Below, piece after piece: positions 16,029 to 27,568 of a stretch of 64,000 bases of DNA. Both the position numbers and the translations under genes were made by a program. The notes beneath the pieces are model-generated. The model was not told the DNA's origin. It searched no databases and was given only the letters and a program-made list of their open reading frames with translations. How positions within the stretch are numbered: position 1 is the stretch's first letter; each line of letters starts with the position of its first letter. The DNA is from Alienimonas californiensis (GTDB lineage Bacteria; Planctomycetota; Planctomycetia; Planctomycetales; Planctomycetaceae), in contig NZ_CP036265.1 in the NCBI RefSeq assembly GCF_007743815.1, positions 894,501-958,500 of the forward strand, read 5' to 3'.

Positions 16029-17657
16029 TCAGTCGTTCCGCAGCTTCAGTTCGAAGTCGGCCAGCTTCTGGCGGATTTCGTTGAGGCTGGTCACGCCGAA
16101 GTTGCGGACGCTCATCAGGTCGTCCGGGGTCCGGCTGACCAGTTCGCCGAGGGTGACGATGCCCAGTCGCGTCAGGCACTTGCGGGCCCGGACGGAGAGG
16201 TTCAGATCGCTGACCGGGCGCTCCAACTTGGCGCGTTCGGCCGGGGAGATGTCGTCGGAGACGAACGGCGAGAGCTTCGGCTGACCCGGGCTGCCGCCGC
16301 CGGTCGGGTTGACCGAGGCCAGCGGGGAGGGCTGGCCGGGCTGCGGGGGGCGGGCCATTCCGGCGCTGGCGCCGTAGCCGCTCGGGGCGCCGCCGTAGCC
16401 GGGGCTGTAGCCGTAGCCGGCGGATTCGGCGGCGTCCTGCTCGACGAGCTGGCCGATCCGCAGGCCGCGACCCTCGAGGATCTCCTTGATCTCGTTCAGG
16501 CTGGTGTCGCCGAAGTTCTTGGCGGCCAGCAGTTCCGCCTCGCTGGTGCGGCAGAGGTCGCCCAGGGTGGCGATGCCGGCCCGCTCCAGGCCGTTGCGGC
16601 TGCGGGCGGTCAGTTCGAAGTCGGTGATGGGGATGCGCATCTGCTGTTCCAGCTCGCGCTGGCGCCGCATCGCCTCCTCGTCGTAGTACATGCTCGTGGC
16701 GGCGGCCACGTCCTTGAGGAACAGCAGGGCCCGCTCGTGGTTCGGGTAGACCTGCAGCACCCGGCGGAAGCAGTAGGCGGCGGCGGGGTAGTTCTCCGCG
16801 TCCTCGTACAGCAGGCCGAGGTTCATCAGGGCCCCCAGGAACAGCGGGGGCTTGCTGAGGCTCTGCTCGTAGAGGCGGATCGCCTCCTTATCTTCGCCCA
16901 GCAGGTCCATCAGGCCGGCGAGGCGGAACATCGCCTTGCTGTGGCGGGGGTCCATGTCGACGGCCCGCTCGAAGTACTCGATCGCCCCGAGGGTGTCCCC
17001 CCGGTCGGCCATCACGCAGCCCTTCTGGTAGCTGTACTCCGCCCGGGTGGCGGCCTTGCGGGAGACGGAGGTCAGCAGCTCGTCGGCCCGTTCCGGGTCG
17101 CCGGACTGCCGGACGACGCCGGCCTTCTCCAGGGCGCACTGGACTTCGTCGTAGCCGTTGGAGGCGGCGGTCTGGAGGGCGTCGATCGCGCCGTCCCAGT
17201 CCTTCAGGCTCATCAGGGCCTGGGCGAGGTAGTAGTCGGCCAGCGGGTCGCCGTCGACTTCGTTGAGCCGTTCGGCGGCCTGTTCGTGCTCGCCCAGCAG
17301 GTAATGGGTGACGCCGGCGGCGGCGTTCTGGCGATTGTTGCCGTCCTCGCCGATCTCGTTCTCGAGTTCCTGCAGATGCTGGCGGACCTCGGCGGGCTGG
17401 GTGCCGGCGACGGCTTTTTCGAGGAGTTTGACCTGTTCGGCGCCGAAGGGGCCGTCGCCGCGGAGGACGCCGGCGACGTCCACCTGGTCGGCCTGTTCGG
17501 CGCTGGTGCCGCCGCCGGGCAGGAAGGCGGGGGCGCCGCGGCGACCGCCCATGTGGGCGGGCGGGGCGGTCATGCCGGCCGCGGTGTACTCCCCGGTGGT
17601 GACCCCGTCGGGGGTGCGGGCGGGCTGAAGATCGGCGAGGTGGCTGCCGGCGCTCAT
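16029..17657 (-). CDS. TPR protein with two RNA polymerase alpha-CTD-like domains
   Basis: A 542-residue protein. Residues ~60-340 form TPR-like helix pairs (for example AIEYFERAVDMDPRHSKAMFRLAGL and YPAAAYCFRRVLQVYPNHERALLFLKDV). Two copies of the RNA polymerase alpha C-terminal helix-hairpin-helix domain follow: ITDFELTARSRNGLERAGI...KNFGDTSLNEIKEIL and VSDLNLSVRARKCLTRLGI...RNFGVTSLNEIRQKL, separated by a Gly/Pro/Tyr-rich linker of ~60 residues. The alpha-CTD of RNA polymerase binds UP elements and activators, so a DNA- or transcription-related scaffold role is inferred. The true rpoA is not here. It stands alone on the strand. Confidence 0.88.
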   Translation of the reverse strand: MSAGSHLADLQPARTPDGVTTGEYTAAGMTAPPAHMGGRRGAPAFLPGGGTSAEQADQVDVAGVLRGDGPFGAEQVKLLEKAVAGTQPAEVRQHLQELENEIGEDGNNRQNAAAGVTHYLLGEHEQAAERLNEVDGDPLADYYLAQALMSLKDWDGAIDALQTAASNGYDEVQCALEKAGVVRQSGDPERADELLTSVSRKAATRAEYSYQKGCVMADRGDTLGAIEYFERAVDMDPRHSKAMFRLAGLMDLLGEDKEAIRLYEQSLSKPPLFLGALMNLGLLYEDAENYPAAAYCFRRVLQVYPNHERALLFLKDVAAATSMYYDEEAMRRQRELEQQMRIPITDFELTARSRNGLERAGIATLGDLCRTSEAELLAAKNFGDTSLNEIKEILEGRGLRIGQLVEQDAAESAGYGYSPGYGGAPSGYGASAGMARPPQPGQPSPLASVNPTGGGSPGQPKLSPFVSDDISPAERAKLERPVSDLNLSVRARKCLTRLGIVTLGELVSRTPDDLMSVRNFGVTSLNEIRQKLADFELKLRND

Positions 17658-18935: not shown

Positions 18936-20573
18936 TCAAAACGCCCCCGCGGCGAATCGGGACAGGACGGTCGGCGTCGCCGTGTCGAAGCCGACCAGGT
19001 CCAGCATCCCCGGGTCCTTGGGGTCGGCGATGCTGAAGCCGGTGGAGGTCAGGCCGACCACCGCCAGCTTCGCGTCGATGCCGGTCGCCCGCCGGTAGCG
19101 CCGCAGCGCCTCGGCGGGGTGGACCGCACCGCACCAGGTTTCGTTGTCCGTAAGGACGACGAACACGTCCACGGCCAGCCGCTGCTCCAGGGCGTACAGC
19201 ATCGGCAGGGCGCAGTCGGTCGGGCCGAACGGCAGGTCCGTGACGGCCTGCACCGCCGCCGCGACGCTGGCGGAGGCGTTGACCGCCGGCAGCGGGGCGA
19301 CGCCGGGAGAACCCAACCGCCACCGCGTGCCGTTGGCGCCGGTGAACCCGACGACGTGGCAGGCCGGCTCCGTCGCGGCGGTGACGATCGCCAGGGCCGC
19401 GGCCGCCTCGCGGCAGGTGATCGCCGTGCCGGCCAGCGACCAGCCCATCGACCCGGACACGTCCAGACCGATCAGGAACCGCTTGCCGGTCGGCTCGACC
19501 GCGTCGAACGCCGCCCGGAAGGCGCCGTCCAGGGCGGCGGTCACCCGGCCGCTCGGCTCCCACGTCCCCTTCCCCTGCACCCCGCGGCCGGACCGGTACA
19601 CGGCCTGGGCGAGGAGCACGGACAACGGGTGCACGCGGGCCTTCTTCAAGGCCGCGGCGTCGGAGAGCCGGTCGACCGCGGCGGCCTCGGCGGCCGACAG
19701 CGGCGGGAGCGCCCCGACGCGGGTCATGTTGCCGAGGTTCCGCAGCAGCGCCGTCGCCCCGAGGTGCGGCAGCATCGCCCGCCAAACGGCGGGGTCCGCG
19801 TTCGCCCAGGTCGGCAGGGCCTCCCACGGCAGCCGGTGGGCCTGGATCAGCTTGACGAGTCTCTTCCGCGGCGAGGCGGCCATCGCCTCCAGGTGCGCCC
19901 GCACGATCGCCGGCAGCCGGCTCTCGTCAGGAACCGAGCCGTTCGCCAGCCAGCGGTACAGGACGTCCCGCTCCGCCTTGTCCTCCCCCGCGCCGTCGGC
20001 CGGGTTCGGGTGGGACAGCCGGATCAGCCGGGCGTGGTCGAAGCCGTACCGGGAACGGTACTTCACGCCCTGAAGGGCCAGCGCGTCGACGGACTTCGCC
20101 GCGTACCAGGCGGCGACGGCCCGCTTCAACCCCCGCCCCCACCCCCGGCCGAGGCCGGTGGCGGCGTTGACGAAGGCGAACAGGTGCGACGCCGTCCGGC
20201 AGACCCGCGGGACCGCCGCCAGCGCGGCGGACCGGGCGTGCGGGTCGGCGTGATTGGCGCCCACGGCCAGGGCGAAGATGGCCGGGTCGTTCTTGGGCGC
20301 CCGGCCGTCCTCGCTGACGGCGGCGATCGTCGCCGCGGTGCGGGTCGGGTTCAGGGCGAAGCAGGCCGTGAGGTTGTCGCAGTTCTCCTTCGTCAGGTCC
20401 CGGGCGGACGCGTAGTAGGTCGGGGCGTCGGAGCCGAGGATCAGGAGCCGATCCAGCCGGGCCCAGCGATCCAGCTCGAACGCGTAGCCGCCGGCGCCGT
20501 TCTTCACCTGCCGCGGATCCGCCGGGGCGGACTGCGGGGCGTCGCGGGGGTTCGTGAGGACGGGGTACTTCAT
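18936..20573 (-). CDS. rsr: Ro60-like TROVE domain RNA-binding protein (Rsr)
   Basis: A 545-residue orthologue of the Ro60 autoantigen. The N-terminal ~330 residues form the helical-repeat TROVE ring (GGYAFELDRWARLDRLLILG, YYASARDLTKENCDNL, APKNDPAIFALAVGA). The C-terminal part is a von Willebrand A-like domain with a complete MIDAS: DVSGSM, the Thr in GPTD and the Asp in LTDNET. In studied bacteria Rsr binds Y RNAs and joins them to exonucleases such as PNPase for structured-RNA decay. The ATG at 20573 is chosen because GGGAGGAG lies about 8 nt upstream; extending further would run into the leader hairpin and the RNA genes. Two Y-like RNAs lie immediately upstream on the same strand. Confidence 0.95.
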   Translation of the reverse strand: MKYPVLTNPRDAPQSAPADPRQVKNGAGGYAFELDRWARLDRLLILGSDAPTYYASARDLTKENCDNLTACFALNPTRTAATIAAVSEDGRAPKNDPAIFALAVGANHADPHARSAALAAVPRVCRTASHLFAFVNAATGLGRGWGRGLKRAVAAWYAAKSVDALALQGVKYRSRYGFDHARLIRLSHPNPADGAGEDKAERDVLYRWLANGSVPDESRLPAIVRAHLEAMAASPRKRLVKLIQAHRLPWEALPTWANADPAVWRAMLPHLGATALLRNLGNMTRVGALPPLSAAEAAAVDRLSDAAALKKARVHPLSVLLAQAVYRSGRGVQGKGTWEPSGRVTAALDGAFRAAFDAVEPTGKRFLIGLDVSGSMGWSLAGTAITCREAAAALAIVTAATEPACHVVGFTGANGTRWRLGSPGVAPLPAVNASASVAAAVQAVTDLPFGPTDCALPMLYALEQRLAVDVFVVLTDNETWCGAVHPAEALRRYRRATGIDAKLAVVGLTSTGFSIADPKDPGMLDLVGFDTATPTVLSRFAAGAF

Positions 20574-20615: not shown

Positions 20616-20647
20616 TAACGCCGAGACCTCGTGGGGCCTCGGCGTTA
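20616..20647 (-). promoter_or_regulatory. Hairpin in the rsr leader
   Basis: A 10-bp perfect stem (20616-20625 with 20638-20647) with two or three possible further pairs lies 43 nt upstream of the rsr ATG and 22 nt past the first Y-like RNA. No T-run follows, so it is not a standard terminator. It could be a processing barrier at the RNA 3' end or an Rsr-bound autoregulatory element; both are inference. Confidence 0.5.
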
Positions 20648-20668: not shown

Positions 20669-20815
20669 CGGAGCCGAGCGAACGGGGCGAGGGTCGACGG
20701 CCCAATGCTCTACCCAGTTGAGCTACGCCGCCGGTCGGCTCGCCGATCGGCGACGGCGGGACTCGAACCCGCAACCGTTGGATTAAGATGATCGACCCTC
20801 TGGGGCTCGGCCCCG
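20669..20815 (-). ncRNA. Y RNA-like (YrlA-type) RNA, copy 1
   Basis: About 147 nt, directly upstream of rsr. Reading 5' to 3' on the minus strand: closing stem CGGGGCCGAGC (20815-20805) pairs with GCTCGGCTCCG (20679-20669); an internal loop CCCA faces GCCCCGTTC; a second stem GAGGGTCGA (20800-20792) pairs with TCGACCCTC (20697-20689). The body is tRNA-like but permuted: TCCAA anticodon-stem half, 5-nt variable region, T-arm GCGGG-TTCGAGT-CCCGC (20772-20756), an 8-bp acceptor-like stem closed by its own small hairpin, TA, D-arm GCTC-AACTGGGTA-GAGC (20723-20707), then TTGGG. T-arm before D-arm with a closed acceptor is the plan of bacterial Y RNAs, and the rsr neighbour supports it. Ends are approximate. 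Confidence 0.85.
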
Positions 20816-20934
20816 AGACTCGCCGGCGGGGTGTTCCCCCGCCGACGCGTGCCGCGGCGAACCGCTCGCCGGCGCCCCCGATCCGCCGTCGCCGACAGGC
20901 GGCGCGCGTCCGGGGTGCGACTGGCGTGTACGGA
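20816..20934. other. Spacer between the two Y-like RNAs
   Basis: About 120 bp with no gene. It includes small GC-rich inverted repeats (for example CGCCGGCGGGG facing CCCCGCCG around 20821-20844) but no clear promoter. The two RNAs may therefore be cut from one precursor. Confidence 0.4.
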
Positions 20935-21080
20935 GCGGGACCGAACGAACGGGCGGCGATCGGCGTTACGCGCTCTACCAGACTGAGCTACGCCGGGCGT
21001 GCAAGAGGCCCGGCAGCGGGATTCGAACCCGCGACCTCGTCCATCGGGAGGAGAACCGATTGCCTGGGGCTCGGTCCCGC
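20935..21080 (-). ncRNA. Y RNA-like (YrlA-type) RNA, copy 2
   Basis: About 146 nt with the same plan as copy 1. Closing stem GCGGGACCGAGC (21080-21069) pairs over 12 bp with GTTCGGTCCCGC (20946-20935). The internal loop is again CCCA, facing GCCCGTTC. The second stem GGCAATCGG (21064-21056) pairs with CCGATCGCC (20963-20955) with one mismatch. The permuted tRNA-like body has T-arm GCGGG-TTCGAAT-CCCGC (21032-21016), acceptor-like stem GCCGGGC/GCCCGGC closed by a 9-nt loop, TA, and D-arm GCTC-AGTCTGGTA-GAGC (20988-20972). The anticodon-side helix is weak (about 3 bp). Stem sequences differ from copy 1 while pairing is kept. It is the promoter-proximal RNA of the rsr locus. Confidence 0.83.
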
Positions 21081-21274
21081 GGAGGAACGGACCCGCGGGC
21101 CGTCGCCGCGGTTCGCGGGTTGGGACGGATTCGCTGCGATCCCGCGGCAGTCAGGTTCGGCCCCATGACAGGTCGGTCCGTCGCTCCTACACTCCCCGAC
21201 CGCAGTTTCAATGAATCCGTCGCCCGCCGCCGAAGTTTCGTCCTCGCGGCCCCACCCCACGGAGGCCCTCCCCC

Positions 21275-22132
21275 ATGCCGACCACCCCCGACGACAAGAT
21301 CGGTCAACTCGCCACGAGCACCGCTCGCCCCGGCAGAACGTCTGTCCCCGCCCACGACGCCTCGTCCCACGACGACGCCTCGAAGAAAAGGTCCTCCAGC
21401 GGCGCCCCGATCGAGGGCGAACCGGACGACACCCCCAGCCCGGCGACCGTCGTCTATAACCCGCCGGACGCCGACCCGGTCTGCGTGATCTGGGACGTGG
21501 ACGGCGTGCTGGTCGACAACTACACGCCCCACCTGGAAAGCTGGCAGAAGACCGCCGAGAAGTTCGGCGTCTCCTACACCGAGGAGGACTTCCAAAGCGG
21601 CTTCGGCAAAACCAGTCGGGAGCACCTGAAGGAGAACTTCGGCGCCAGCATGGCCGACGAGCAGATCGTCGAGGTCGAGAACGACAAGGAGTCCCTCTAC
21701 CGCGAGATGGTCGCGGAGAACTTCCCGGCGATGCCCGGCGCCCGCGAACTGATTCAGGCCCTCAAGGACGCGGACTTCAAGATCGCCCTGGCCACCAGCG
21801 GCCCGGCGGCGAACCTGATGCTCGCGGTCCGCCTGATGAAGCTCCAGCCGTTCCTCAGCGCCGTGGTCAGCGGCAATGAGGTCGCCAAGGGCAAGCCGGA
21901 CCCGGAGATCTTCCTGAAAGCCGCGAAGAGCTGCGGCGTGAAGCCGACCCGCTGCGTGGTGGTCGAGGACAGCCGCTTCGGCGTCGAGGCCGCCAAGGCC
22001 GCGGGGATGGGCTGCCTGGGCCTGCTCTCTACCGGCCACGAAGCCGCCGAACTGGAAGCCGCCGACCGCGTCGTCGAGAGCCTCGAAGGCCTCACCGCCG
22101 ACGACCTCCGGGCCCTGCTGCCGGCGACCTGA
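21275..22132 (+). CDS. HAD-family hydrolase (beta-phosphoglucomutase/phosphatase-like)
   Basis: A 285-residue HAD-superfamily enzyme. Motif I is [10 protein letters not shown] (Asp74 nucleophile, Asp76 acid/base), followed by an alpha-helical cap ([21 protein letters not shown]). Motif II lies in ALATSG, the motif III Lys in [11 protein letters not shown], and motif IV in [17 protein letters not shown]. This matches subfamily I phosphatases and phosphoglucomutases acting on small phosphorylated metabolites. The first ~65 residues are a low-complexity extension without family similarity, so the true start could be later. It is followed 112 bp later by dapA. Confidence 0.88.
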
Positions 22133-23461: not shown

Positions 23462-26400
23462 ATGACATCGCCCCCCTGCCCCGACGCCCCACGCCGCCCG
23501 CCGTCGGGCCGCCGGTCCGTCCTCCGTCCGGTCGTCGCGATCGCTGCCGCCCTGCTGGCCCTCCCGGCCCCGGCGACGGCTCAGGTGGTGGACGTCGGCG
23601 GGTTCACGGTCGTGTTCCACAACGCCACCGACGGCGACTACAATTTCGGCGGGGTGGACAACATCGCCGCGGCGGACCTCGGCAACTGGACCGCCGCAGA
23701 GCAGACGGCCGTATTGAACACGTTCCAATACTGGACGGACACGCTCAACTTGCCGACGGCCGCGGCGAATCCGGAACGGCCGATCATCTATCTGGTGAAG
23801 GACAGCACCATCGCGCCGCAGAACGCGAACGCCCGTCCGGCGGTGGTGAACAACGGCGGCGTCCTGCGTTCGAACACCTCCAGCCGGCTGGTCGACGGGT
23901 TCGACGCGCCTCGAATCGCGGCTCCGGGCAGCACGCCGGCCCGCCCGGGGCAGGACGGCCGGATCATCTACGGCGTCGAAGGGCTCGGCGCCTTGCTGGA
24001 TCCGACCGAACCCACGCAGTTGGCCACCGGGTTCTCGTTGCAGCGGACCTCGATCCACGAAGTCGGCCACCTGCTGGGGTTTGTCGGCGACGACCCCTAC
24101 GTCAATAACATTAACGGGGCCGGGAACTTTATCGTCGCCGGCGGGGCCGTGGACCGGATCACCGGCGGCGTCGGCGTGCCGATCGCCGGCGATAACGCCC
24201 ACACGCTGCTCCAGTACCACAATATGACGCGGGCCAACCCGTTCGGCACCTCGTTTCGCAACATGGCGGCCTTCGGCCCCGCGGAACTGGCCATCCTCGC
24301 GGACATCGGCTACGACACCGGCGTCGACGCGACGTTGGACCTCGACGAGCACTTCGGCGGCGCCCGATACTTCACCGCCGTCACCGGGACCATCGGGTTC
24401 AACGACAACGTCGCGGGCGTGACCGGCTCGGGGACGACGTGGGTCTCGGCTCAGGATTATTCGCTCGGCTACTTCCTGCAGACCGACGGCAGCGACATCG
24501 TCCTCGTCGGCGACACGCAGCAGACCGGCTTCGCCACCGCCGGGGTCCGGATCGCCGGGGAAGACACCCAAACGATCGGCGACCGGGTCACCGTGTCGAC
24601 GGACAGCAACATCGAGGCGACCGGGGACAGCAGCGTCGGCGTGCTGGTCAGCAGCGGGGCCAACAACTGGATCACCCACCGCGGCGGGATCAACCTGACC
24701 GGGGCGGACACCGTCGGCCTGCAGTTCGACTTCGGCGGCCCGTTCGGGACCGCCGGCCCCAACTCCTTCCAGGTCGGTTCGGGTGATTACGGCGCCTATC
24801 TCGTCGACCGCGTCGACCTCTCGGGGACCGTGATCGCGGACACGGCGATTTTCATCGACGACAGCGCCGCCGTCCGGGAGATCAACCTCCTCCGCGGGAC
24901 CGTCCTCGCCGGGCCGGCCCTGACCGGCGACATCATCAGCAACGCCTACACCGACGCCACGCTGATCCGGCCGATCCTCACCTTCGGCCGGGACGTCGAT
25001 CTGGCCACCGGCCGGGCGGTCGGCGCGGGCGGCGACGGGCTGTTCGACTTCACCTACGACGGCGACATCGGCGGCACGACCCCCGTCTTCGCCGAGGTGT
25101 ACGGCGGGACCAGCACGATGAACGGGGACCTCCTGTTCCGCAGCTTCAACGGCCTCGGCGGACAGATGCTGGTCAACGGCTCGATCACAAACCAGCTCGG
25201 CACGACGCTCACCGGCGGCGACCTGTCGATCGAGGCCGGCGCCGACGGGGCCCTGGCGGAGACCGTCGTGGACAGCGGCGTCCTGAACGTCGCCGGCGTC
25301 GCCGCCACGGGCGGCAACGACCTGACCGTGAACGGCATCGGCGGCGCCGCCGTCACCGGCGGCGGCGTCCTGACCGTCGACGACCTGTTCGTCAACACCG
25401 GCGGGACGGTCGTCGTCACCGACGCCGGCACGCTGAACGGCGACGACGTGACGGTCAACCAGGGCTTCGTCACCCTCGCCGGCGCCGGCGACATGAACGT
25501 CGACACCGTCACCGTGGCCGCCGGCGGGACGGTGAACGTGTCCAGCGCCCTCGCCACGCTGGACGCCGGCGCCGCCGCCGCCGTCGACGGGGCCGGTTCC
25601 CTGTTGCAATCTTCCGGCGGCGGCGGTTTCAACGGGGCCACCCTCGCCCTCACCGACGACGGCGACGCCCTCGTCACCGGCGCCGGCTCCACATTCACCC
25701 TCACCGGCGCCGCCACCGTCGACGGGGCCGGCTCCGGCTTAGTTGCCCAGAGCGGCGGCGACTTCGACGGAACCACCCTCGCCCTCACCAACGACGGCGA
25801 CGCCCTCGTCACCGGCGCCGGCTCCACGTTCACCCTCACCGGCGCCGCCGCCGTCGACGGGGCCGGCTCCACGCTCTCGTCGCAGTTCGGCGGCGCTCTG
25901 ACCGCCGACTCCGCCACGCAGACCGGCGGGTTGATCCACGTGGGGACCGGCTCCACGACGACCTTCGCGAACGACGTAACGGTCAACGGCGGGGAGACCC
26001 GCGTGAACGGCACGCTGACCGCCGCCAACCTGCTGATCAACAGCGGCGGCCTGCTGACCGGCGGCGGCACGATCGTCAGCGATCTTGCCATGAACGGCCG
26101 CCTCGCCGTCGGCAACAGCCCCGCCGTGCTGAACGTCGTCGGCAACTTCACCAGCGGGCCGGGCGCGATCACCGACCTCGAATTGCAGGCCGCCACGGCC
26201 CCCGTCGCCGGGATCGACTTCGACCAGACCGCCGTCACCGGAACCGCCACGGTCAACGGCGGGACGGTCAACGTGCAGCCGTTCGGCAATCAGAACTTCG
26301 CGGTCGGCACGCGGTACGACTTCCTCACCGCCGCCGGCGGGCTGACGGTCCTGAATCCCGTGACCGTGTTCGACCCGCTGGCGAACGTGCGGTTCATCCA

Positions 26401-27568
26401 GCAGATCGACCCGAACGTCTACGCCCTGATCTTGGCCCGGGACCAGTCCTTCGCGGCCGGCGGAGCCACGTTCAACACCCGGCAGGTCGGCGCCGCGCTG
26501 GACGCCGTCGGGAGCGACCCCGCCCTCGCCGATCTGCGGAACGCCCTGGACACCCTGCCGACCGAAGCCGCCGCGCAGCGGGCGCTCAACCAGTTGTCCG
26601 GCGAAATCTACGGAACGCACCTGACGGCGTTGAACCGCAGCTCGCTGCAGTTCCTGGACGTGATCGGCGGTCAGGGCGGGGCCTCCCCGCTGGCCTGCGG
26701 GTCCTGCGAGGTCAACGGCCTGCAGGGCTGGATGGAAGGCTACGGCGGCGACGCCCGGATCGACGGCGACGGCAACGCCTTCGACGCCCGCACCGGCAGC
26801 GGCGGGGCGGCGGTCGGCCTGTCGCGGACCTACTACGGCCCGAACGAGTGCATCTCGATCGGCGGGTTCTACGCGTTCGAATCGCTGACCACGCGGGCGC
26901 CGCAGGCGAACTCCACGATCACCGACAAGGTGCTCCGGGCCGGCGGGACGGTGAAGGCCGTCGCCGGGTCGGCGTACGCCCGCCTGTCCGGCTTCGGCGG
27001 CATGGCCTTCGGGGACGCAACGCGGTCGTTCTCGGCCGCCGACGCCGTCCTGCCCTTCGCCGACCGCACCGCCGCGGAGACCGACGCCACCCTCGCCGGC
27101 GGCGACGCCGAACTGGGCATGCTGTTCGGCGTGGAGGAGTCCTTCGTCACCCCCGTCGTCGGCGTGCAGTACATGCATGTGGACCGTGACGGCTTCACCG
27201 AAGACGGCGGCGCCACGGCGCTGTTGGTGGACGACAGCACGTTGAAGGAAGTGCGGCCCCGCGTCGGCCTGCGGGCCGGACGCTGGATCCCCCTGGCCGT
27301 CGTCGGGCCGAGTACCGCCACCTTTGAAGCGTTCTACAGCCGCGATGTCACCGCCGGGTCGATCGGCGACTACCGGGCCCGGTTCGACGCCGTCCCGACC
27401 GCCGCGTTCGACGCCCGCGGCACGGACTTCTCCCGGGACCGCTTCACCCTCGGCCCCGGCCTGACGATCGGCGAGGGGCCGGTGCGGCTGGCGACCCAGT
27501 ACCGGGCCGGGCTGACGGAGACGTCGGTCCTGCACAGCGGCGACGTGCGGCTGGAAGTCTGCTACTGA
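23462..27568 (+). CDS. Autotransporter with metalloprotease-like passenger domain
   Basis: A 1368-residue secreted surface protein. A signal peptide ends near ATAQ (~40). Residues ~45-300 resemble planctomycete NF038122-type metalloproteases, with the zinc motif HEVGHLLGFVGDD (HExxHxxGxxxD) near residue 200. A Gly/Thr/Asp-rich beta-helical passenger with repeats follows (~300-950). A linker ALNQLSGEIYGTHLTALNRSSLQFLD and a CGSC motif lead into the C-terminal ~300-residue autotransporter beta-barrel (GWMEGYGG...), ending in an aromatic residue (EVCY) as expected for BAM recognition. It is first of three tandem paralogues sharing linker and barrel. The protease may act on the cell surface or release the passenger; that is inference. 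Confidence 0.87.
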   Translation: MTSPPCPDAPRRPPSGRRSVLRPVVAIAAALLALPAPATAQVVDVGGFTVVFHNATDGDYNFGGVDNIAAADLGNWTAAEQTAVLNTFQYWTDTLNLPTAAANPERPIIYLVKDSTIAPQNANARPAVVNNGGVLRSNTSSRLVDGFDAPRIAAPGSTPARPGQDGRIIYGVEGLGALLDPTEPTQLATGFSLQRTSIHEVGHLLGFVGDDPYVNNINGAGNFIVAGGAVDRITGGVGVPIAGDNAHTLLQYHNMTRANPFGTSFRNMAAFGPAELAILADIGYDTGVDATLDLDEHFGGARYFTAVTGTIGFNDNVAGVTGSGTTWVSAQDYSLGYFLQTDGSDIVLVGDTQQTGFATAGVRIAGEDTQTIGDRVTVSTDSNIEATGDSSVGVLVSSGANNWITHRGGINLTGADTVGLQFDFGGPFGTAGPNSFQVGSGDYGAYLVDRVDLSGTVIADTAIFIDDSAAVREINLLRGTVLAGPALTGDIISNAYTDATLIRPILTFGRDVDLATGRAVGAGGDGLFDFTYDGDIGGTTPVFAEVYGGTSTMNGDLLFRSFNGLGGQMLVNGSITNQLGTTLTGGDLSIEAGADGALAETVVDSGVLNVAGVAATGGNDLTVNGIGGAAVTGGGVLTVDDLFVNTGGTVVVTDAGTLNGDDVTVNQGFVTLAGAGDMNVDTVTVAAGGTVNVSSALATLDAGAAAAVDGAGSLLQSSGGGGFNGATLALTDDGDALVTGAGSTFTLTGAATVDGAGSGLVAQSGGDFDGTTLALTNDGDALVTGAGSTFTLTGAAAVDGAGSTLSSQFGGALTADSATQTGGLIHVGTGSTTTFANDVTVNGGETRVNGTLTAANLLINSGGLLTGGGTIVSDLAMNGRLAVGNSPAVLNVVGNFTSGPGAITDLELQAATAPVAGIDFDQTAVTGTATVNGGTVNVQPFGNQNFAVGTRYDFLTAAGGLTVLNPVTVFDPLANVRFIQQIDPNVYALILARDQSFAAGGATFNTRQVGAALDAVGSDPALADLRNALDTLPTEAAAQRALNQLSGEIYGTHLTALNRSSLQFLDVIGGQGGASPLACGSCEVNGLQGWMEGYGGDARIDGDGNAFDARTGSGGAAVGLSRTYYGPNECISIGGFYAFESLTTRAPQANSTITDKVLRAGGTVKAVAGSAYARLSGFGGMAFGDATRSFSAADAVLPFADRTAAETDATLAGGDAELGMLFGVEESFVTPVVGVQYMHVDRDGFTEDGGATALLVDDSTLKEVRPRVGLRAGRWIPLAVVGPSTATFEAFYSRDVTAGSIGDYRARFDAVPTAAFDARGTDFSRDRFTLGPGLTIGEGPVRLATQYRAGLTETSVLHSGDVRLEVCY
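25583..25852. repeat. 135-bp tandem repeat (two units plus partial) in autotransporter passenger
   Basis: Units start at 25583, 25718 and 25853 with GTCGACGGGGCCGG, an exact 135-bp (45-codon) period. Units read VDGAGS...TLALT(D/N)DGDALVTGAGSTFTLTGAA. They are near identical at the DNA level, indicating recent duplication within the beta-helix. Confidence 0.85.

What the first reader, a model, noticed from the sequence alone, without database searches (positions are those of the whole stretch)
20669..21080. Two tandem unannotated Y RNA (YrlA-type) genes directly upstream of the Ro60 orthologue
Seen: on the rsr strand, two ~146-nt segments share closing stem, CCCA internal loop, second 9-bp stem, T-arm, self-closed acceptor-like stem and D-arm, in that order. 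T-arm before D-arm means a tRNA circularly permuted at the anticodon loop. Known: bacterial Y RNAs of the YrlA class carry such a tRNA-mimicking module and are encoded near rsr. Inferred: these are the Rsr partners in this planctomycete, in two copies.
Basis: partly seen in the sequence, partly recalled or inferred. Interest (0 to 1): 0.92.

Follow-up and report, generated by a model that had tools for sequence, protein, structure and literature searches.

The report
Two tRNA-mimicking Y RNAs beside Ro60
Just upstream of its Ro60-like gene this bacterium carries two small RNA genes, each a rearranged tRNA joined to a stem expected to bind the Ro60-like protein; this kind of RNA is known, but related loci in phages and other bacteria show the same parts joined in ordinary tRNA order too, often with the anticodon hairpin kept.

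Summary
Confirmed. Upstream of rsr (18936-20573, minus strand) lie two ~148-nt minus-strand elements (20935-21082; 20669-20817): closing stem, CCCA loop, second stem, T-arm, self-closed acceptor, D-arm. Rfam YrlA is the best hit for both, but below its gathering score (44.7 and 40.3 against 69 bits). A covariance model built only from other loci finds both (57.3 and 64.4 bits; next 7.3). They are bacterial Y RNAs with a circularly permuted tRNA module; function is inferred.

(2) A. chondri keeps the distal RNA, but its second Y RNA lacks the tRNA module. (3) Related loci carry the chimera permuted (28 strict cases) and in ordinary tRNA order (25 Y-like cases); reversed-sequence control 0 and 0. 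(4) In 30 of 56 elements the Y stem sits within the anticodon stem between tRNA positions 28 and 29, leaving an anticodon hairpin; the distal copy fits. The key papers were not held, so prior report of (3)-(4) is not excluded.

The parts
20935..21082 (-). distal Y RNA gene with permuted tRNA module
   Evidence: Rfam YrlA 40.3 bits; model R1 64.4 bits; conserved in A. chondri L127:180-348
21069..21080 (-). distal: 5' strand of the closing (expected Rsr-binding) stem; 3' strand 20935-20946
   Evidence: folds
21065..21068 (-). distal: CCCA internal loop, within GAGCCCCAG
   Evidence: same 9-mer in L127, L142, L156, L166 (listing; L127)
21040..21052 (-). distal: anticodon-like hairpin, 3-bp stem and 7-nt loop; two further pairs join the bases next to the D-arm to the bases before the variable loop
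   Evidence: 5 of 5 pairs; loop has C, not U, at position 33
21016..21032 (-). distal: T-arm
20991..21015 (-). distal: self-closed acceptor-like hairpin
20972..20988 (-). distal: D-arm
20669..20817 (-). proximal Y RNA gene with permuted tRNA module
   Evidence: Rfam YrlA 44.7 bits; model R1 57.3 bits; the A. chondri counterpart has the Y stem only
20756..20772 (-). proximal: T-arm
20726..20755 (-). proximal: self-closed acceptor-like hairpin with an extension
20707..20723 (-). proximal: D-arm
20778..20782 (-). proximal: 3' strand of a 5-bp anticodon stem; 5' strand 20701-20705 next to the D-arm
   Evidence: 5 of 5 pairs, classic mode
20616..20647 (-). hairpin between the proximal Y RNA and rsr; a similar hairpin stands at the same place in A. 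chondri; role unknown
   Evidence: read; the terminator scan found nothing
18936..20573 (-). rsr, Ro60-like protein of 545 aa (TROVE and vWA_Ro60)
   Evidence: Pfam; 372 bits to D. radiodurans Rsr 2nvo and 349.2 bits to RO60 9nen

Best explanation
The two elements are small RNA genes for Y RNAs that partner the adjacent Rsr. The terminal stem with its internal loop is expected to bind Rsr; the far end is a tRNA module opened at the anticodon arm and closed at the acceptor, expected to be recognised by tRNA-modifying enzymes and to hold PNPase, as described for YrlA and the RYPER complex. The module comes from a real tRNA: in the distal copy the Y stem sits inside the anticodon stem between tRNA positions 28 and 29, in the proximal copy in the anticodon loop. 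The locus was probably gained horizontally from phage- or plasmid-borne loci of the Ro60 type. Shown here: anatomy, similarity to independent elements, gene neighbourhood, Rsr type, presence of PNPase in the genome. Inferred: transcription, Rsr binding, PNPase tethering, direction of transfer.
For: Structure and order of parts. Independent model hits. Outer stems pair better than swapped partners. Rsr adjacent on the same strand. Conserved distal element in A. chondri, with a compensatory acceptor change. In 101 genomes of the family all 27 with a TROVE hit also have a YrlA hit at E < 1e-3, though the Rsr there is of another type. Rsr of the Ro60 type in a 14-row clade with 10 viral contigs and 2 alphaproteobacterial plasmids. 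PNPase in the genome, 919 bits. RYPER and the modification of YrlA: PMC8394870 and PMC4726728, passages only.
Against: Neither copy reaches the YrlA gathering score. The internal loop (GAGCCCCAG) differs from the Rfam consensus (AAUGC), and the UUAUC motif seen in 36 of 55 elements is absent from both copies. No minus-strand promoter-like or terminator-like site. The distal anticodon loop lacks U33. The outer-stem test failed (10 or more of 30 swapped partners as good) for 6 of the 31 elements. A. chondri lacks the tRNA module in the second copy. Nothing here measures expression or binding.
Confidence: 0.87

Rival explanations
1. Circularly permuted tRNA genes: the transcript is cut and rejoined so that a working tRNA (CUU anticodon for the proximal copy) results, as known for some algal and archaeal genes (recalled).
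For: The proximal copy can form a complete 5-bp anticodon stem and its loop reads like that of a tRNA-Lys(CUU) (my reading). The genome encodes RtcB ligase, 227 bits.
Against: Both copies keep a long terminal stem shared with rsr-linked Y RNAs elsewhere; the distal loop lacks U33; RtcB lies about 2 Mb away; the A. chondri second RNA has the Y stem but no tRNA part.
Confidence: 0.04
2. Rsr-bound decoys for nucleases that cut tRNAs in the anticodon loop: the kept anticodon hairpin, rather than PNPase tethering, would be the point of the tRNA module.
For: An anticodon-like hairpin fits in 30 of 56 elements, with U33 in 27 of those 30. Many relatives lie in phages, 343 records, some beside tRNA genes (at least 3 tRNAs in 27 of 102 loci). 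The authors of PMC7790460 suggest that YrlA could competitively inhibit an anticodon nuclease (passages).
Against: The window's distal copy has lost U33 and the proximal one has no separate hairpin of this kind. In Salmonella YrlA was not cut by the nuclease studied. 26 of 56 elements do not fit the 28/29 arrangement.
Confidence: 0.12
3. Decayed remnants: transferred Y RNA genes no longer transcribed.
For: No promoter-like or terminator-like site on the minus strand; one copy lacks its tRNA module in A. chondri.
Against: Stems intact in both copies; distal element 135 of 151 identical between species, with differences mainly in loops; rsr open and 82% identical.
Confidence: 0.06
4. Tandem ordinary tRNA genes or chance palindromes misread as Y RNAs.
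For: Tandem tRNAs also put a T-arm before a D-arm, and the YrlA model rings weakly in 13 of 14 control genomes at E up to 1.
Against: The acceptor strand pairs with a strand directly ahead of the D-arm in both copies; ARAGORN finds no tRNA here; 57-64 bits against next best 7.3.
Confidence: 0.01

Closest known systems
YrlA, bacterial Y RNA class (Rfam RF02553; Chen et al. 2014 and Wang et al. 2018, cited from memory and through PMC8394870, papers not held)
   Same: Order of parts, closed acceptor, T- and D-arms, terminal stem, place beside rsr.
   Different: Below the gathering score; another internal-loop sequence; anticodon hairpin inside the distal element; Y stem at 28/29.
Animal Y RNAs and nematode sbRNAs (Rfam RF01656)
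   Same: Relatives of these elements carry the GGNCCG-AAG ... GGUUAUC plan; 7 RF01656 hits in 6 of 12 related bacterial loci, one above its cut-off, L130 38.4 against 38 bits. The Rsr is of the Ro60 type.
   Different: The window itself has no RF01656 hit up to E 10. PMC4726728 calls bacterial Y RNAs not homologous with the vertebrate clades (passages).
Deinococcus Y RNA (Rfam RF01053) and RYPER
   Same: Rsr closest in the PDB to D. radiodurans Rsr; genome encodes PNPase.
   Different: No RF01053 hit to the window up to E 10.
Circularly permuted tRNA genes (algae, archaea; recalled)
   Same: 3' half before 5' half.
   Different: Long terminal Y stem, closed acceptor, link to rsr.

Membership tests
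Rfam YrlA RF02553 (curated) | score at or above gathering threshold, 69 bits | tested here: not met
   44.7 and 40.3 bits; none at gathering in the window
YrlA-class bacterial Y RNA (broad sense) | T-arm, closed acceptor, D-arm in this order inside a terminal stem | tested here: met
YrlA-class bacterial Y RNA (broad sense) | encoded near a Ro60 orthologue | tested here: met
   95 bases upstream of rsr, same strand
YrlA-class bacterial Y RNA (broad sense) | internal-loop sequence of the Rfam consensus (AAUGC) | tested here: not met
   GAGCCCCAG in both copies
YrlA-class bacterial Y RNA (broad sense) | bound by Rsr; dihydrouridine and pseudouridine in the tRNA module | not testable with these tools
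   needs pull-down and modification mapping
Ro60 / Rsr protein | TROVE domain and Ro60 vWA domain | tested here: met
   PF05731 and PF25045 over their cut-offs
Permuted tRNA gene | yields a CCA-tailed, charged tRNA | not testable with these tools
   acceptor closed by a loop in the gene
Nematode sbRNA / animal Y RNA | Rfam RF01656 match | tested here: not met
   no hit in the window region up to E 10; hits in 6 of 12 related loci

The most novel reading that the evidence does not exclude
The Y RNAs of Ro60-type Rsr loci are whole tRNAs into which the Ro60-binding Y helix was inserted, in many within the anticodon stem between positions 28 and 29 so that an anticodon hairpin survives. One and the same RNA then exists as two circular permutants: opened at the Y stem with the acceptor closed (YrlA order, as in the window), or opened at the acceptor with the Y stem closed by a short loop (ordinary tRNA order). 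These permutants have swapped repeatedly while moving with phages and plasmids, and the window's pair is a phage- or plasmid-derived case.
Probability: 0.65. Interest if true: 0.78.

Novelty: new variant of a known kind. Interest (0 to 1): 0.6.

Why it matters
It adds a Ro60-type Rsr/Y RNA pair in a planctomycete outside the type usual in its family, and through its relatives it says where the tRNA mimicry of bacterial Y RNAs may come from: not convergence on a tRNA shape, but a tRNA with a Y helix inserted. That makes an open question testable: whether the two permutants bind Rsr and PNPase alike, whether RNase P and RNase Z cut out the tRNA-order form, and whether the kept anticodon hairpins do anything. 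The loci also bear the UUAUC motif known from animal Y RNAs (36 of 55 elements), which bears on whether animal Y RNAs share ancestry with bacterial ones.

Tried and rejected
Rfam at gathering threshold gave nothing, so the lower-threshold search was read together with an independent model. Family-level YrlA hits with E above about 1e-3 were not used as evidence: control genomes ring at that level. The family's YrlA arrays (up to 6 hits, G067) belong to a different Rsr type and support co-occurrence only. Co-location was not seen in all family genomes: in G032, G046 and G098 the YrlA and TROVE hits stand on different contigs. Of 19 family genomes with a YrlA hit at E up to 0.1 and no TROVE hit, two (G026, G067) have an Rsr by an iterated profile; for three others fetched (G044, G054, G038) none was found in the stretch fetched; the other 14 were not looked into.

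Descriptor counts: one search examined the window and 102 loci (L127-L228). 31 permuted cases include L163 (duplicate of L162, dropped) and 2 of the window, leaving 28. 26 tRNA-order cases include L128:5766, which has no Y-like insert; the motif test passed 22, and I accepted 3 more (L181:6831 and two in L218) by eye. L137 nearly repeats one of L132. A. chondri (L127) was missed by the strict scan although one search had found it, and was added by hand. Of the strict permuted cases only 21 of 31 passed the same Y motif test. The strict scan selects for pairing, so the paired fraction is by construction; only the variety of pair types, the strand (30 of 30 and 26 of 26 on the rsr strand) and the zero controls are informative. 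The insert folds of the tRNA-order cases were often not better than shuffles. The relaxed scan gave 48 permuted and 29 tRNA-order cases on the rsr strand against 0 and 1 on the other strand; 36 of 89 rows had neither.

Transfer from phage is an inference from one tree (quick method, SH-aLRT only, 32 of 86 inner branches under 80). Two models of three and four Rfam searches of eight... were not all used: one covariance model was built and six Rfam searches run. No structure prediction was run.

Literature: searches (an open-licence library); from their listings none showed a Y RNA in tRNA order, but I saw listings only, except passages of PMC8394870, PMC11472068, PMC9569102, PMC4726728 and PMC7790460. 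Chen 2014, Wang 2018 and Sim and Wolin 2018 are not held; what I say of them is recalled or taken from those passages.

Full report
What is there. On the minus strand, between a HAD-family hydrolase gene (21275-22132, plus strand; Pfam) and rsr (18936-20573, minus), two elements of about 148 nt stand in tandem. Each has a closing stem, a CCCA internal loop, a second stem, a T-arm, a self-closed acceptor-like hairpin and a D-arm, in that order.

Is it more than chance. Shuffles fold as well in 3 of 200 (proximal) and 7 of 200 (distal) cases, which is modest. Rfam YrlA is the best family for both, 44.7 bits (proximal) and 40.3 bits (distal), below the gathering score of 69; at gathering threshold the window has no Rfam match. 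A covariance model made from 23 permuted elements of other loci, without the window or A. chondri, gives 64.4 bits (distal) and 57.3 bits (proximal), the next match in the window being 7.3 bits and in the whole genome 29.5 bits. The outer strands of the two copies pair at -44.7 and -49.6 kcal/mol, matched by 0 and 1 of 30 swapped partners; in the same test 6 of 31 elements did no better than 10 or more of the swapped partners.

The protein. The neighbour has TROVE and vWA_Ro60 domains. In the PDB it is closest to D. radiodurans Rsr (2nvo, 372 bits) and to animal Ro60 (9nen 349.2 bits, 1yvp 348.3 bits), whereas a typical Rsr of the same bacterial family reaches 87.1, 49.5 and 34.0 bits. Within 101 genomes of the family, 27 have a TROVE hit and all 27 have a YrlA hit at E < 1e-3, so Rsr and YrlA go together there too; but except in the same-genus genome the best identities to the window's Rsr are about 22-26%. 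In 392 genomes of the phylum 24 have a match at E up to 1e-10; besides the window's own, one scores 454.6 bits (a Brocadia assembly by its counterpart) and the next 72.8.

Relatives of this Rsr. A scan of genome contigs gave 12 loci: A. chondri (82%) and others at 44-49% from assemblies labelled Thermoleophilaceae, Glaciihabitans, Pedosphaera, Akkermansia, Myxococcales, Brocadia, Sericytochromatia, Solirubrobacter, Anaerolineae, Sorangium and Kofleriaceae. 343 of 50,697 phage records hold a match, 53 of 72,556 plasmid records match the Brocadia protein, and 302 viral-contig stretches encode relatives, of which the best 80 were kept, up to 56% identical. In a tree of 89 Rsr rows the window falls in a 14-row clade (SH-aLRT 99) with A. 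chondri, 10 viral contigs and two alphaproteobacterial plasmids. I infer horizontal gain from phage or plasmid; the tree is a quick one and the direction is not shown. The 9-mer GAGCCCCAG of both window copies recurs in L142, L156 and L166, with one change in L173, all of that clade.

The same-genus locus. A. chondri keeps the distal RNA: 135 of 151 aligned bases are identical, and the acceptor stems differ by a compensatory change (G-C to A-T). Its second element (L127:399-490) has the Y stem but no tRNA module.

The two circular permutants. A strict descriptor (5 of 5 T-stem, 7 of 7 acceptor and 4 of 4 D-stem pairs) on the window and 102 related loci found 31 elements in YrlA order and 26 in ordinary tRNA order with an insert of 50 nt or more between D-arm and T-arm; the reversed sequences gave 0 and 0. 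After dropping a duplicate and the window there are 28 permuted cases; of the 26, one (L128) is not Y-like, 22 pass the Y motif test and 3 were accepted by eye. All lie on the rsr strand (30 of 30 and 26 of 26). In the tRNA-order form the insert reads Y 3' strand, short loop (for instance GCAA, GAAA or UUCG), Y 5' strand, i.e. the Y stem is closed and the acceptor open. The Brocadia locus has such a chimera plus two plain Y stems ahead of rsr. RNAalifold on 23 tRNA-order cases gives acceptor, D- and T-stems with 14 of 17 pairs changed on both sides in at least one sequence, with the caveat that the cases were selected for pairing. On the Rsr tree the fewest changes between loci with only one or the other form is 9, and 7 loci hold both.

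The anticodon arm. Testing the bases between Y stem and T-arm against those after the D-arm, 30 of 56 elements show 5 of 5 pairs if the Y stem is placed between tRNA positions 28 and 29, leaving a 3-bp hairpin with a 7-nt loop; 27 of the 30 have U33, 28 a purine at 37, 27 A38. Swapping the D-side among elements gives 7.1 on average (most 14), shuffling 1.9 (most 6). Nine others show a classic 5-bp anticodon stem with the Y stem in the loop. The window's distal copy fits the first arrangement, but with C at position 33 (U in A. chondri); the proximal copy fits the second.

How it most likely works. By analogy with YrlA and RYPER (PMC8394870, PMC4726728, passages), the terminal stem holds Rsr and the tRNA module holds PNPase and draws tRNA-modifying enzymes; the genome encodes PNPase (919 bits). 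Binding, modification and expression are not shown. No minus-strand promoter-like or terminator-like site was found; in this G+C-rich genome that says little.

Known or new. Y RNAs that mimic a circularly permuted tRNA are known (PMC11472068 passages, citing the YrlA structure). The window's copies are a variant of that kind. Whether tRNA-order Y RNAs and the kept anticodon hairpin have been described I could not settle: the main papers are not held, and eight searches of the open library listed nothing of the sort.

Noticed in passing
window 20616-20647 (-) and A. chondri L127 upstream of rsr: A hairpin between the proximal Y RNA and rsr stands at the same place in both species; it is not followed by a T-run.
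   Followed up: no
window 25477-25570 (-): ARAGORN's tRNA-Glu call lies antisense within a 1368-aa open frame (23462-27568) and is probably false.
   Followed up: no
L065:10190-10370 / L127:1-160: A. chondri has about 20-nt tandem repeats up to the contig end, just ahead of the distal Y RNA.
   Followed up: no
G067:C85:27550-29623 (L091): The family's other Rsr type carries arrays of YrlA elements, up to six hits on one contig.
   Followed up: partly
L148:3113-3321 (Rhodococcus phage Trina): Annotators list a 209-nt pseudo 'tRNA-OTHER' directly ahead of the Ro gene, probably a Y RNA / tRNA chimera.
   Followed up: no
L130:3610-3679, L134:3751-3816, L131:506-577 and others: Bacterial loci beside Ro60-type rsr hit the nematode Y RNA-like family RF01656, once above its cut-off (L130).
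   Followed up: partly
window 16029-17657 (-): A protein with TPR repeats and two RNA polymerase alpha C-terminal domains.
   Followed up: no
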